Assembly (NCBI GenBank): GCA_014801955.1
Contig: JAAVDE010000041.1
Coordinates: forward strand, 50,870 to 114,869
From: Bacteroides sp.
GTDB lineage: Bacteria; Bacteroidota; Bacteroidia; Bacteroidales; Muribaculaceae
Direction: 5' to 3'
Length of the DNA stretch: 64,000 nt
Shown here: piece by piece, positions 39,311 to 58,657 of the stretch
Numbering within the stretch: position 1 is the first letter of the stretch
Layout: each line of letters begins with the position of its first letter
Notes under the pieces: model-generated
Databases searched by the model: none
Told to the model about the DNA's origin: nothing
The model's input: only the letters and a program-made list of their open reading frames with translations
Program-made: the position numbers and the translations under genes

Positions 39311-39710
39311 AGAGAGAAAGAGGGGCCGTCGGGCCGTCCGTCGCGCGCCGCCCGGTTCGGCGCGAGGAAAGTCCGGGCAACATAGAGCACCATATTATCT
39401 AACGGATAGCTGTCGGAATAAATAACGGCAGAGTAGCGTGACAGAAAATAACCGCCCGCGCGACCAACGCGCCGCGCAGGCAAGGGTGAAAAGGTGGGGT
39501 AAGAGCCCACCGGGGCCGATGGCGACATTGGCTGCCGCACGCCTTATGGGTTGCAAGGTCAAGTATACCGGCAATTAAGGGTTGCTCGCCCGCTGCCGGG
39601 GGGTAGACTGCGTCAGATAAATGACGGACCGCGGGGCCGTTTGCCTAAAAGCAATAACGACTTCCGACGACATAACCCGGCTTACAACCTGACCGCCCCT
39701 CTTTCTCTCT
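39311..39710 (+). ncRNA. rnpB: RNase P RNA (bacterial class A)
   Basis: GAGGAAAGTCCGGGC (CR-I), ACAGAAA, AAGGGTGAAAAGGTGGGGTAAGAGCCCACCGG, GGGTAGACTGCGTCAGATAAATGACGG, ACATAACCCGGCTTAC; terminal helix AGAGAGAAAGAGGGGC / GCCCCTCTTTCTCTCT. Confidence 0.95.
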
Positions 39711-52760: not shown

Positions 52761-54896
52761 ATGAGAATCCCTTCTACCGACCTGCCTTCGATAATTGCAG
52801 AAGACCTGAATCTGACCCGCAAACAGGCCAACGCAACAATCAAACTGCTCGACGACGGCGCAACAGTGCCTTTCATTGCCCGCTACCGAAAGGAAGCTAC
52901 CGGCGATCTCGACGAGCTGATGGTCTACCAAGTCAGCCGCCGCCTGGCCGCACTGCGCGAGTTCCTGAAACGCCGCGAATTCATTGTTGAGCAAATCAGG
53001 GGCGCCGGAGCGCTGACCCCCGAGCTGGCCGACCGCATTGAACACACTTTCGACCCCGCAACGCTCGAAGATATTTACCTGCCCTTCAAGCCCAAGCGCC
53101 GCACCCGCGCCGAAATGGCCCGCGAGCGCGGCCTCGAGCCGCTGGCAAAAATCATAATGGCGCAAACAACGTTGATTCTCAAACGAACAACAAAGAAATA
53201 CGTTGACAAGGTTGAAGTGCCAACGGCTGCAGATGCGATTGCCGGCGCGCTCGACATCATTGCCGAGTGGATGAGCGAAAACGAAAAGGTGCGCAACCTG
53301 ATTCGCGCAAAATTCCAGCGCTCGGCAGAATTTTCGACCAAGAAGGCTAAAAACGCAAACGACGAGAACGAGCTCTACGCCTCGTTCTATGATTATTCGC
53401 AGCCGTTGCGCCTGGTGCCCTCCCACCGCTATCTGGGCGCGCGCCGCGGCGAAGAGGCCGGGATTCTGAAAGTCTCCATCGCCATCAACGACGACGAAAT
53501 GATCGAGCGCCTCGGCCGCTTCTTTATCAAACCGGGCGCCAATCCGGAGTGTGCGGAACTGGTCGGCCAGGCCATCCGCGATTCCTATCGCCGCCTGCTG
53601 CGCCCGTCGATTGAAAACGAAATCGCCGCCGCCGCCAAGGAAAAGGCCGACTCCGCGGCCATCGATAATTTTGCCTACAACCTGCGGCAGCTGCTGATGA
53701 CTCCGCCGCTCTTTGGCAAGCGAGTAATGGGCATCGACCCCGGCTTCCGCAGCGGATGCAAGGTCGCCTGCCTCGACGAGCAGGGCAACCTCCTGGCCGA
53801 CGACATTTTCAATCTCTCCGACCCCCACGGCGCCGCCTATCTGATCTGCTCGATGATAAGCACCTTCAACATTGACGTCATTGCGCTCGGCTCGGGCACT
53901 GCGGGCCGCGAAACCCAGCGCTTCCTCAACGACGTTCGCATGCCGCGCCCTGTGCAGATTGCGATGGTCAACGAAGATGGCGCCTCGGTCTACTCGGCCA
54001 GCGAAATCGCCCGCGAGGAGTTTCCCGACAAAGACATTACCGTTCGCGGCGCCATTTCCATCGGCCGCCGCCTGCAAGACCCCCTGGCCGAGCTGGTTAA
54101 AATCGACCCCAAGAGCATCGGCGTCGGCCAGTATCAGCACGACGTTGACCAAACGCGCCTGAAAGAATCGCTCGACTTCACGGTTGAAAGCTGCGTTAAC
54201 TCCGTAGGCGTCAACGTTAACACCGCGTCGGCCGCCCTGCTCAGCTACGTCAGCGGCATCGGCCCCGCCCTGGCGCGCTACATTGTTGACTACCGCAAGG
54301 AAAACGGCCCCTTCCGCCGCCGCACCGACCTGATGAACGTTTCGCGAATGGGCGAAAAGGCCTTTCAGCAATGTGCGGGCTTCCTGCGCATCCCCGACGC
54401 AGAAAACCCGCTCGACAACACTGCCATCCACCCCGAGCGCTACGAGCTGGTGATGCGCATGGCCCGCGACCTGCGAACCTCAACCGCCCAGCTGGTCAAC
54501 AATCCCGCCCTGGCTTCCAACATCGAAATCGCAAAATATCTCGATAAAGATACCGGCGTTCCGACCCTGAAACTCATAATCGAGGAGCTGTCGAAGCCCC
54601 GCCGCGACGCCGCCGAGGAGGTAGCCAACGCCGAGTTCGACGAAAACATCAGCTCCATCAACGACATCCGCCCCGGAATGACCCTGACCGGCAAGGTCAA
54701 CAACATTACCAATTTCGGCGCGTTCGTTGACCTGGGAATCAAGGAAAACGGTCTGCTCCACGTTTCGCAAATGAGCGAACGCTTCGTCAACTCGCCGTTT
54801 GAGGTAGTCAGCATGGGTCAGACAATCCGCGCGCGAGTAATGGACGTTGACCCCCTGCGCGGTCGCATTGCCCTAACTCTCAAGGGCCTGGAGTAA
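52761..54896 (+). CDS. tex: RNA-binding transcriptional accessory protein Tex
   Basis: Tex-N, YqgF-like (MGIDPGFRSGCKVACLD), HhH, C-terminal S1 domain (GMTLTGKVNNITNFGAFVDLGIKENGLLHVS). Confidence 0.95.
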   Translation: MRIPSTDLPSIIAEDLNLTRKQANATIKLLDDGATVPFIARYRKEATGDLDELMVYQVSRRLAALREFLKRREFIVEQIRGAGALTPELADRIEHTFDPATLEDIYLPFKPKRRTRAEMARERGLEPLAKIIMAQTTLILKRTTKKYVDKVEVPTAADAIAGALDIIAEWMSENEKVRNLIRAKFQRSAEFSTKKAKNANDENELYASFYDYSQPLRLVPSHRYLGARRGEEAGILKVSIAINDDEMIERLGRFFIKPGANPECAELVGQAIRDSYRRLLRPSIENEIAAAAKEKADSAAIDNFAYNLRQLLMTPPLFGKRVMGIDPGFRSGCKVACLDEQGNLLADDIFNLSDPHGAAYLICSMISTFNIDVIALGSGTAGRETQRFLNDVRMPRPVQIAMVNEDGASVYSASEIAREEFPDKDITVRGAISIGRRLQDPLAELVKIDPKSIGVGQYQHDVDQTRLKESLDFTVESCVNSVGVNVNTASAALLSYVSGIGPALARYIVDYRKENGPFRRRTDLMNVSRMGEKAFQQCAGFLRIPDAENPLDNTAIHPERYELVMRMARDLRTSTAQLVNNPALASNIEIAKYLDKDTGVPTLKLIIEELSKPRRDAAEEVANAEFDENISSINDIRPGMTLTGKVNNITNFGAFVDLGIKENGLLHVSQMSERFVNSPFEVVSMGQTIRARVMDVDPLRGRIALTLKGLE

Positions 54897-55261
54897 TGCG
54901 CTACCTGCTGAGTTTCGGAAGCAATGCCCCCGGGCGCGAGCAGTTCATGGAACGCGCCCGCCAATGGCTCGCCCAGAATTTTGCCAACGTTGAAAGCTCG
55001 GACATTTACTCGTCGCCGGCCCATAACGGCGTTGCTCCCGATTATCTCAACATGGTTGCCCGCGGCGACTCGGAGCTGAGCGTCACCGACCTCACTGCCG
55101 CCGCCAAAGACTTTGAGCGGCAGCAGGGCCGCACTCCCCAAAGCAAACAGCGCGGAGCAATCGAGCTCGACATCGACATCATCGCTGCCGGCCCGACCAT
55201 TCTCCGCCCTGCCGAATATACCCGCCCCTATTTTCTGCGCGGGCTCGAAGCCCTCGGCTAA
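54896..55261 (+). CDS. FolK-like (HPPK) short protein
   Basis: SFGSNAPGREQF...YLNMV...GRTPQSKQRGAIELDIDIIAAG HPPK motifs. Confidence 0.75.
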   Translation: MRYLLSFGSNAPGREQFMERARQWLAQNFANVESSDIYSSPAHNGVAPDYLNMVARGDSELSVTDLTAAAKDFERQQGRTPQSKQRGAIELDIDIIAAGPTILRPAEYTRPYFLRGLEALG

Positions 55262-55644
55262 CTGCGCCGCGCGGCACCCAGGATGTAGCATCCAGCCGCA
55301 ATCAGCAGCCAGCACCATATCGGAGGTCGCCAAGCACCGCTGCCGCCACCGGCGCGTACGGGCTCCGACAGCTCTCGGCGCTCCATAGCTGCCGAATCGG
55401 TCGCAACGGCCTCGACCTTCGCCTCCCGGCGCCGCTCAACCCTTGCACTCCGCGCCTCAATGCGGCAGCCGCCGGAATCGGGCGGAATAATCCTGACGTC
55501 GTCGAGCCTGACGGTCAGCTCTTCGCCGAAAAGCGCCCGAACGGAGTCGTGGCGCTCATAGCGCACCCGCTCGCCGACGCTATGGCTGGGCGATGAGCAA
55601 GCCCACAAAGCCAGCGCTACTCCAACACACGCCGCGCACCTCAT
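55258..55644 (-). CDS. Lipoprotein with C-terminal TM (u-spanin-like topology)
   Basis: MRCAACVGVALALWAC lipobox, charged central region, C-terminal PPIWCWLLIAAGCYILGAARRS TM; overlaps the lysozyme gene. Confidence 0.6.
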   Translation of the reverse strand: MRCAACVGVALALWACSSPSHSVGERVRYERHDSVRALFGEELTVRLDDVRIIPPDSGGCRIEARSARVERRREAKVEAVATDSAAMERRELSEPVRAGGGSGAWRPPIWCWLLIAAGCYILGAARRS

Positions 55645-56078
55645 TGCCGCCCCCCTTCGCTGAAATAAACCTCGGCCTCGCGCCGACGCCGGCGCACGAG
55701 CCCCTGCAAAACGCGTCCGCCACCATAGATCCAGCGCATGAACTCAGCCTCGATAGTCGGGTCGGAAGCATTGCTCCGCACTTTGCGCAAAAGCGTTGAC
55801 CGCCTCAGGGCATCGACCCCGACGTTAAACCCGAAGCTCACCAGGGCGGCGCGCTGCTGCGGCGTCAGCTCAACTCCGCGCAACGCCCTGTCAACGATAT
55901 CCGCGTCGGCGCGAAGCAGCCTCTCGGCCTCGGCAACAGTAATTTTCATATCCGGGCGAACGCTTGCGGTATGACCCCAGCCGATGGTCCACACCCCCGA
56001 CGGGCAACGATATGCCTCCAGGCGCAAGCCCTCGAACTCCTTAATCAGATTCAGTGCGTTTTCCATCGCTCCCCTCAC
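55641..56078 (-). CDS. GH24 phage-type lysozyme (endolysin)
   Basis: LIKEFEGLRLEAYRCPSGVWTIGWGHT fits E-8aa-C-5aa-T; no signal peptide. Confidence 0.93.
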   Translation of the reverse strand: MRGAMENALNLIKEFEGLRLEAYRCPSGVWTIGWGHTASVRPDMKITVAEAERLLRADADIVDRALRGVELTPQQRAALVSFGFNVGVDALRRSTLLRKVRSNASDPTIEAEFMRWIYGGGRVLQGLVRRRRREAEVYFSEGGRQ

Positions 56079-56266
56079 TTCCTGTAACGGTAGTCAATTC
56101 CGAGGAGCGACCCCGCAAAGGTCATACACTCGCCGAAGCCAATCAGCACGGACTGATGAATCCGGCCCGGAGGCTCCACACAAAATCCGGCGACCAACAG
56201 GCCGCACCCGACAACCGCAACGGCCACCGCCGCCCACAGCTGCATACTCTTAAATTCATTCTTCAT
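56075..56266 (-). CDS. Small two-TM holin-like protein
   Basis: MKNEFKSMQLWAAVAVAVVGCGLLVAGFCVEPPGRIHQSVLIGFGECMTFAGSLLGIDYRYRK; first gene of the lysozyme operon; promoter TAACTTTG 8 nt upstream. Confidence 0.65.
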   Translation of the reverse strand: MKNEFKSMQLWAAVAVAVVGCGLLVAGFCVEPPGRIHQSVLIGFGECMTFAGSLLGIDYRYRK

Positions 56267-56324
56267 AACGCCCGCAAAGTTACGCTCCCCACCCCCTTCC
56301 CAACCGTATAATCCTAAAAAAGAA

Positions 56325-57035
56325 TCACTGCCGGCGGGCAACGGCATTGATTATCTGCGAGGCCAAAACGAGGCCCCAAACGGCGGTTATCTGCATCAGC
56401 GAGCCGTTTGGGCCTGAGGCCGGGGCGGGCAACACTTCGTCGGAAAACACTGCCTTGAACTTGCGGCGCGGCCAGCGGCCAATGCGCTTGAAGCGCGAGC
56501 GCAGCGCTGCCGCGAGCGGGCAGCCCTTGACGTCGGCAAACTCGCGCACCTGAACGCGCAGCGGATCGGTTTTGCGCGCCGCGCCCATCGAGCTGACCAA
56601 TTTTGGCTTCGAGCCGAGCGACGTTGCCAGCAAAATCAGCTCTGCCTTGTCGGCCACGGAGTCGATTGCGTCAACAACGAAATCATAGCTCCCGAGGTCG
56701 AAGTCCGCGGCGCTTTCCGCCGTGAAGCGGCGCTGCAGCGCCGTAATCTCGGCCTGCGGGTTAACCTCCAGCAAATGGCGACGCATCGCCTCGACCTTCG
56801 GCTCGCCGATGGTTGCGGTCGTTGCCGGCAGCTGGCGGTTAACATTGCTCGGCGCAACGTCGTCCATGTCAACAATCGTCAGCGAGCCAACTCCTGTGCG
56901 CACCAGCGCCTCGGCGCACCAGCTGCCGACGCCGCCGACGCCAAACAATATCACGCGCGTCTGCGCCAGGCGTTCCATAACCTCCGCTCCGAGCAGAATC
57001 TCGGCGCGGTCAAAGATTTCGGGTGAGTTCAACAT
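56325..57035 (-). CDS. tcdA: ThiF/E1-like tRNA threonylcarbamoyladenosine dehydratase
   Basis: RVILFGVGGVGSWCAEALVRTGVGSLTIVDMDDVAPSNVNRQLPA. Confidence 0.9.
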   Translation of the reverse strand: MLNSPEIFDRAEILLGAEVMERLAQTRVILFGVGGVGSWCAEALVRTGVGSLTIVDMDDVAPSNVNRQLPATTATIGEPKVEAMRRHLLEVNPQAEITALQRRFTAESAADFDLGSYDFVVDAIDSVADKAELILLATSLGSKPKLVSSMGAARKTDPLRVQVREFADVKGCPLAAALRSRFKRIGRWPRRKFKAVFSDEVLPAPASGPNGSLMQITAVWGLVLASQIINAVARRQ

Positions 57036-58517: not shown

Positions 58518-58555
58518 ATTTGCGTATGTCGGAAAAATGTTGTAACTTTGCAGTC

Positions 58556-58557
<2 letters not shown>
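58518..58557 (+). promoter_or_regulatory. Promoter of SRP RNA
   Basis: ATTTGCGTATGTCGGAAAAATGTTGTAACTTTGCAGTCGG immediately upstream of the RNA. Confidence 0.8.

Positions 58558-58657
<100 letters not shown>

What the first reader, a model, noticed from the sequence alone, without database searches (positions are those of the whole stretch)
55258..56290. Stand-alone holin / GH24 endolysin / u-spanin-like lysis cassette in a housekeeping neighbourhood
Seen: three overlapping minus-strand genes driven by one TAACTTTG promoter. Gene 1 is a 63-aa protein with two hydrophobic segments. Gene 2 is a signal-less GH24 lysozyme with an exact E-8aa-C-5aa-T triad (EGLRLEAYRCPSGVWT), so it would need a holin for export. 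Gene 3 has an N-terminal lipobox, a charged periplasmic-length middle and a C-terminal TM followed by RRS. Established: T1-type unimolecular spanins are OM lipoproteins with a C-terminal inner-membrane TM. Inference: this is a complete gram-negative lysis module. No integrase, terminase, capsid or tail gene occurs in the window, and it is wedged between folK-like and tcdA. It may be domesticated for programmed lysis, release of vesicles or proteins, or large-protein export.
Basis: partly seen in the sequence, partly recalled or inferred. Interest (0 to 1): 0.78.

Follow-up and report, generated by a model that had tools for sequence, protein, structure and literature searches.

The report
Lysis module of scattered phage-derived particle system
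Three small genes that would burst the bacterial cell sit alone among housekeeping genes, but they share a distinctive promoter with virus-capsid and DNA-packaging genes scattered over the same chromosome, so they look like the release module of an undescribed gene-transfer-agent-like system kept by nearly all Muribaculaceae gut bacteria.

Summary
A holin-like, GH24 lysozyme and u-spanin-like cassette lies between folK and tcdA with no other phage gene in the window. 'Stand-alone' is misleading. All 11 genus genomes carry the cassette, linked in 10, among varying housekeeping neighbours, under one promoter ((A/T)(T)CTACG-N22-TAnnTTTG-N4-9-ATG). A genome-wide search with that promoter gave, as the three best hits in the window's own genome, the capsid operon (scaffold-MCP-connector-portal), this cassette, and a lone terminase large-subunit gene. 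These lie on different contigs among housekeeping genes. In sister genome G008 the loci spread over one 1.27-Mb contig. Each species uses its own promoter variant at its particle loci (0 of 20,000 permutations as extreme). MCP and TerL occur, mostly single-copy, in 263/297 and 181/198 Muribaculaceae genomes. MCP also occurs in six other Bacteroidales families. Cassette divergence tracks MCP and TerL divergence. Best reading: the lysis module of a vertically inherited, chromosomally dispersed, phage-derived particle system that works like a gene transfer agent. I found no GTA described in Bacteroidota in the papers held. Packaging of host DNA, lysis and transfer are inferred, not shown; tail genes and a small terminase are unidentified.

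The parts
56275..56311 (-). Shared particle-regulon promoter: TTATACGGT-N20-TAACTTTG, ending 8 nt before the holin ATG (near-leaderless mRNA inferred)
   Evidence: Only match in the window, 0.06 expected; conserved in the other genus genomes with variants; genome-wide the top three hits are MCP operon, this site and TerL
56075..56266 (-). Holin-like protein, 63 aa, helical hairpin
   Evidence: Homologues in 71 phage records, nearly all Bacteroides/Porphyromonas (weak E-values per hit), beside an annotated endolysin gene in BT401P2; present in all 11 genus genomes at 52-81% identity; AF2 hairpin pLDDT 78; fold search found no significant match
55641..56066 (-). GH24 lysozyme/endolysin without a predicted signal, triad E12/C21/T27
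   Evidence: Pfam PF00959 1e-38, phrog_7 8.6e-53; nearest solved structure 6h9d 1.6e-20; invariant triad; only GH24 gene found in this genome
55258..55644 (-). u-spanin-like lipoprotein, 128 aa: N-terminal lipobox Cys16, beta-strand middle, C-terminal TM, RRS
   Evidence: Cys invariant and C-terminal hydrophobic segment kept in 9 aligned sequences despite 18-43% identity; AF2: SP helix, strands 35-53 and 61-79, helix 109-127, low pLDDT 63; no family hit

Best explanation
The cassette is the host-lysis module of a chromosomally dispersed, vertically inherited, phage-derived particle system that works like a gene transfer agent. When an unidentified regulator acts on the promoter (A/T)(T)CTACG-N22-TAnnTTTG, the cell transcribes scaffold-MCP-connector-portal (G000:C45), the terminase large subunit (G000:C37), a 500-630-aa structural-like protein ('tailX', G000:C45) and the lysis cassette (window). 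TerL fills P22/SU10-type heads, probably with host DNA because the genes lie far apart and no prophage surrounds them. The holin then permeabilises the inner membrane, GH24 cuts peptidoglycan and the u-spanin fuses inner and outer membranes, releasing the particles. Shown: dispersal, shared promoter, conservation, co-divergence. Inferred: expression, assembly, packaging of host DNA, lysis, transfer.
For: Genome-wide in G000 the three best promoter matches (0, 1, 2 mismatches) precede MCP, lysis and TerL. TerL phrog_2 2e-22; portal phrog_156 4e-31 and P22_portal; MCP SU10_MCP 2e-46. All sit among housekeeping genes. In G008, on one 1.27-Mb contig: lysozyme-spanin 0.4 kb, holin 108 kb, TerL 470 kb, MCP operon 1.21 Mb, tailX 1.27 Mb. 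Promoter variants are species-specific and shared among particle loci: within-genome distance 0.75 against 2.2, 0/20,000 permutations. MCP in 263/297 and TerL in 181/198 Muribaculaceae. MCP stands in non-prophage context in the other genera fetched and readable. Cassette distances correlate with TerL (r 0.81-0.82) and MCP (r 0.65-0.70). Walker-like, LSEVA and DVGG motifs kept in all genus TerLs examined. The ordinary related prophage is elsewhere, on C44.
Against: No particle, transcript or packaged DNA was observed. No small terminase or firm tail gene found; tailX and the 117/140-aa proteins match no family. TerL was not found in G004 and G007, nor MCP in G007 (83-85% complete MAGs). Gene 3 is missing in G001 and G009. 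In G008 the holin is unlinked from the lysozyme, though each has its own promoter copy. The tailX promoter in G000 is weak (a mismatch level at which the control also gives hits). MCP of G001/G005/G009 has a different upstream box. Holin and spanin assignments rest on topology and position.
Confidence: 0.75

Rival explanations
1. A phage-derived particle system with the same genes and lysis module, but whose particles are bactericidal or otherwise not DNA-transferring (PBSX-like), or empty shells with another cargo.
For: Tail and DNA-delivery genes are not identified; FpGTA authors raise the same caveat by comparing with PBSX (PMC12946183).
Against: TerL is retained under purifying selection in about 91% of Muribaculaceae genomes with conserved motifs, together with a portal; both would be expected to be kept only if DNA is packaged.
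Confidence: 0.15
2. A stand-alone domesticated lysis cassette for vesicle release, eDNA release or large-protein export (type 10 secretion-like), unrelated to particles.
For: Complete holin/endolysin/spanin set beside housekeeping genes; a large divergent secreted protein adjoins it in three relatives (L044, L046, L050).
Against: The shared species-specific promoter ties it to capsid and terminase genes; the large secreted protein is not beside the window cassette.
Confidence: 0.07
3. A decaying prophage remnant or independent captures of phage lysis genes.
For: The holin and lysozyme have relatives in Bacteroidales prophages, including extra copies in some of the same genomes.
Against: 11/11 genus members, overlapping chains of shared flanks, pN/pS well below 1, invariant catalytic residues, conserved promoter, co-divergence with MCP/TerL.
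Confidence: 0.03

Closest known systems
RcGTA of Rhodobacter capsulatus (with CcGTA and BaGTA)
   Same: Particle genes of phage origin in several chromosomal loci under common trans control; RcGTA release by a holin-endolysin mechanism (stated in PMC13236601); CcGTA uses a main cluster plus distal co-induced loci (PMC9632790).
   Different: Different phylum and phage ancestor (P22-type portal, SU10-type MCP); no large core cluster, terL/MCP/lysis are separate loci; shared near-leaderless Bacteroidota-type promoter; u-spanin in the lysis module.
FpGTA of Faecalibacterium (PMC12946183)
   Same: Gut, podovirus-like GTA-like element with TerL, portal, scaffold and MCP, in two operons about 125 kb apart.
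   Different: Gram-positive host, operon of ten genes; its particles and packaged DNA were observed, ours were not. That paper reports only lateral transduction for Bacteroidota.
Bacteroides phages BF1-TP2, BS-TP4, BKO1-TP3
   Same: Nearest relatives of MCP (36-39%) and TerL (32-33%) in the phage collection.
   Different: Contiguous 64-68-kb phage genomes; no homologue of connector, tailX or the small proteins in the stretch of BF1-TP2 compared.
T1 gp11-type unimolecular spanin
   Same: N-terminal lipobox, C-terminal TM, beta-rich middle (definition in PMC6139136).
   Different: No sequence similarity detected; function untested.
Holin/endolysin/spanin export systems (type 10 secretion, from memory)
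   Same: Three-function lysis cassette without surrounding phage genes.
   Different: No associated cargo; promoter shared with capsid and terminase genes.

Membership tests
GH24 (phage lysozyme, PF00959) | Family profile match above cut-off | tested here: met
   132.9 bits against cut-off 22.3
GH24 (phage lysozyme, PF00959) | E-8-D/C-5-T catalytic triad | tested here: met
   E12, C21, T27 invariant in 10 sequences
Holin | Small membrane protein with one or more TM segments beside an endolysin | tested here: met
   Two predicted helices; beside the endolysin here and in phage BT401P2
Holin | Membrane permeabilisation and timed lysis | not testable with these tools
   Needs expression; no holin family or significant fold match
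Unimolecular spanin | N-terminal lipobox plus C-terminal TM in one protein | tested here: met
   Invariant Cys and C-terminal hydrophobic segment in 9 proteins
Unimolecular spanin | Beta-rich periplasmic domain | tested here: inconclusive
   Two long strands in a model of pLDDT 63
Unimolecular spanin | Disrupts the outer membrane / complements RzRz1 | not testable with these tools
   Experiment needed
Gene transfer agent | Phage-derived structural and packaging genes (MCP, portal, TerL) | tested here: met
Gene transfer agent | Long-term vertical inheritance with purifying selection in a bacterial lineage | tested here: met
   263/297 and 181/198 genomes; genus monophyletic in both trees; low pN/pS
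Gene transfer agent | Genes not packaged as a unit: loci dispersed, no integrase/prophage block | tested here: met
   Separate contigs or up to 1.2 Mb apart on one contig, housekeeping neighbours
Gene transfer agent | Common regulation of the loci | tested here: met
   Shared promoter with species-specific variants; expression not measured
Gene transfer agent | Particles package random host DNA | not testable with these tools
   Needs particle sequencing
Gene transfer agent | Transfer of DNA to recipient cells | not testable with these tools
   Needs a marker-transfer assay
Type 10 secretion-like export | Cargo enzyme or toxin encoded with the cassette | tested here: not met
   No cargo gene adjoins the window cassette; large secreted neighbour in only three relatives

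The most novel reading that the evidence does not exclude
An ancient gene transfer agent of Bacteroidota, kept by nearly all Muribaculaceae and at least six further Bacteroidales families, whose genes have scattered over the chromosome. In some species (G001, G002, G006, G009, G010) it also commands several dispersed phage-type replication initiator genes, which may fire local replication and amplify host DNA for packaging before the lysis cassette opens the cell.
Probability: 0.3. Interest if true: 0.95.

Novelty: new variant of a known kind. Interest (0 to 1): 0.86.

Why it matters
Muribaculaceae are major gut bacteria, especially of mice, and the family carries, nearly universally, capsid, portal and packaging genes that do not form a recognisable prophage. 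If they make particles that move host DNA, this would be a large undescribed route of gene transfer in the gut and, as far as the papers held show, the first GTA-like element in Bacteroidota. Each species' own promoter variant gives a way to list the regulon and find its regulator, and particle sequencing makes the function directly testable.

Tried and rejected
A prophage remnant was rejected (genus-wide conservation, no phage neighbours). A generic sigma-70 scan found no promoter; the full Bacteroidota-type promoter appeared only after comparing relatives. Matching the holin by fold gave nothing significant. PHROG, Pfam and NCBIfam gave no identity for gene 3; PHROG and Pfam gave none for tailX, connector or the 117/140-aa proteins. 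Stand-alone holins in other genera (L084, L098, L099, L102, L103) were looked at, but their promoters do not clearly match the MCP promoter of the same genome, so I do not claim a family-wide lysis module. Viral-contig search with the holin alignment gave only three loci and was not pursued. The divergent large secreted protein as export cargo was dropped because it is not adjacent in most genomes.

Full report
WHAT IS THERE. On the minus strand, between folK (54896-55261, +) and tcdA (56325-57026, -), lie three genes: a 63-aa protein with two hydrophobic helices, a 141-aa GH24 lysozyme (Pfam 1e-38, phrog_7 8.6e-53) and a 128-aa protein with a lipobox, a beta-strand middle and a C-terminal TM helix. 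Genes 2 and 3 overlap by ATGA; genes 1 and 2 are 8 nt apart. The lysozyme triad E12/C21/T27 is intact. No other ORF of the window matches the prophage or particle proteins assembled here.

KINSHIP OF THE PARTS. The 63-aa protein has homologues in 71 phage records, nearly all of Bacteroides and Porphyromonas (weak E-values), and in BT401P2 it sits directly before an annotated endolysin. A prophage of a relative carries the same order: holin-like, lysozyme, lipoprotein with C-terminal TM (G008pro). Kongari et al. define u-spanins by an N-terminal lipoylation signal plus a C-terminal TM, and describe a mainly beta periplasmic domain for T1 gp11 (PMC6139136); gene 3 has this architecture, and its relatives keep the cysteine and the C-terminal hydrophobic segment at 18-43% identity.

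NOT A STRAIN-SPECIFIC REMNANT. Lysozyme and holin occur in all 11 genomes of the genus. The stand-alone genus copies have no phage neighbours in the stretches read; neighbours differ but form overlapping chains (folK/tex shared with G004; a large secreted protein in G003, G004, G005; one gene downstream in G001, G005, G009; recO near G003, G006, G008), as expected for vertical descent with rearrangement. Prophages with their own lysozyme exist separately in G001, G006 and G008. Mean pN/pS is 0.33 for the holin, 0.47 for the lysozyme and 0.78 for gene 3. Gene 3 is absent in G001 and G009. In G008 the holin and the lysozyme-spanin pair are 108 kb apart, and each has its own copy of the promoter.

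THE PROMOTER IS THE KEY. Upstream of the holin, genus genomes with otherwise unrelated flanks share (A/T)(T/A)CTACG or a near variant, 22 nt, TAnnTTTG, then 4-9 nt to the ATG (G001/G009 TTTTGCG, G005 AATACG and G007 TTCTCC depart from it). The -7 box is the Bacteroidota type (from memory); its closeness to the start codon implies a near-leaderless mRNA (inference). In the window it occurs once (0.06 expected). Genome-wide in G000 the three best matches to TTCTACGGT-N20-TAACTTTG are C45:26990 (0 mismatches), this cassette (1) and C37:5554 (2); all other hits need 3.

WHAT ELSE CARRIES IT. C45:26990 heads an operon of a ~70-aa scaffold-like protein, a 392-aa major capsid protein (SU10_MCP 2e-46, phrog_26635 1e-73), a 171-aa connector-like protein and a 429-aa portal (phrog_156 4e-31, P22_portal). 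C37:5554 heads a lone 574-aa terminase large subunit (phrog_2 2e-22) beside tsaD. C45:10349 (weaker promoter) heads a structural-like protein, tailX, near smpB. Sister genomes repeat this: MCP-portal in G003, G004, G006 and G008, TerL in G003, G006 and G008, tailX in G004, G006 and G008, at separate housekeeping sites with the promoter. On G008's 1.27-Mb contig the loci lie at 0.4 kb, 108 kb, 470 kb, 1.21 Mb and 1.27 Mb. The promoter drifts between species but is shared within a genome: for 28 boxes, mean distance is 0.75 within and 2.2 between genomes, 0 of 20,000 permutations as low. That is what co-evolution with one regulator would give. The boxes were read off by hand, and sister species are not independent.

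HOW WIDE. The MCP is found, mostly once per genome, in 263 of 297 Muribaculaceae genomes over all 30 genera sampled (a minority of these, in g30 and a few others, are weak matches), and TerL in 181 of 198 (134 of 141 high-quality genomes), mostly at another site (G105: 0.18 and 2.73 Mb of one contig; G017: 0.60 and 1.56 Mb). The contexts of the MCP operon in other genera that I could read are non-prophage (output partly cut). In the order, MCP matches at 47-53% identity recur in six other families. MCP and TerL distances correlate across 17 genomes (r 0.67). Lysozyme and holin distances correlate with TerL (r 0.82, 0.81) and MCP (r 0.70, 0.65). The genus is monophyletic in both trees, and the phage and the G000 prophage pair apart in the TerL tree. 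Part of such correlation is simply shared ancestry, which is the point: vertical co-inheritance.

MECHANISM. Most likely: one regulator switches on head, packaging, tail-like and lysis loci; heads assemble on the portal and are filled by TerL; with no linked prophage to package, the DNA is mostly host chromosome; holin, GH24 lysozyme and u-spanin lyse the producer and free the particles. Location, promoter sharing, conservation and family identities are shown. Expression, assembly, DNA content, lysis and transfer are inferred.

A FURTHER ODDITY. In G001, G002, G006, G009 and G010 the same promoter precedes several dispersed genes with a Lin1244_N / phage replication-initiator domain (phrog_2562 2e-15, phrog_16706 6e-16). 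Local replication to amplify host DNA, as I recall for BaGTA run-off replication, is a speculation worth testing. G000 has only one Lin1244_N gene, on prophage contig C44.

COMPARISON. By anatomy this works like a GTA. R. capsulatus also uses holin-endolysin lysis, while Caulobacter uses LypABC (PMC13236601). CcGTA has distal co-regulated loci (PMC9632790). FpGTA is described as the first such element found in the human gut microbiome and has podovirus-like morphology (PMC12946183); that study highlights lateral transduction, not GTAs, in Bacteroidota. No paper held contains both 'gene transfer agent' and Muribaculaceae. Membership in GTAs is not claimed as proven, because packaging and transfer could not be tested. 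Most subscription papers and preprints were not searchable.

Noticed in passing
L362-L366, L368, L369 (G001); L354, L355, L357-L361 (G002); L338, L346, L348, L350 (G006): Multi-copy, dispersed phage-type replication-initiator genes (Lin1244_N), most with their own copy of the particle promoter; 3-9 per genome in one part of the genus.
   Followed up: partly
L336, L343, L344, L353 (G006): Multi-copy family of about 200-aa Arg-rich proteins behind the same promoter, no known family.
   Followed up: partly
L332, L335, L339, L340, L341, L347, L349, L351, L352 (G006): A repeated element of about 300 bp that begins with the particle promoter and lies in front of unrelated genes.
   Followed up: no
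L447, L450, L451, L456, L457, L460: In six other Muribaculaceae genera the major capsid ORF has an N-terminal hydrophobic extension of about 60-80 aa; start sites not verified.
   Followed up: no
L103 10050-11105 (G024): Stand-alone holin-amidase-u-spanin-like cassette in another genus, with an amidase in place of GH24 and a near-leaderless TAACTTTG promoter.
   Followed up: partly
L084, L098, L099, L102: Holin-like genes alone among non-phage genes in other Muribaculaceae genera.
   Followed up: no
L462 (G000:C44): Ordinary prophage contig with portal and TerL related to the dispersed ones (34-38% identity); G000's single Lin1244_N gene also lies on this contig.
   Followed up: partly
L291 4158-4936, L342 6594-7355, L371 1739-2420: A conserved pair of small genes (about 140 and 117 aa) that travels near the MCP or tailX loci; probable further particle components.
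   Followed up: partly
window 58549-58657 (+) and 39325-39700 (+): Bacteroidales small SRP RNA and RNase P RNA; the SRP RNA family points to Bacteroidales.
   Followed up: yes
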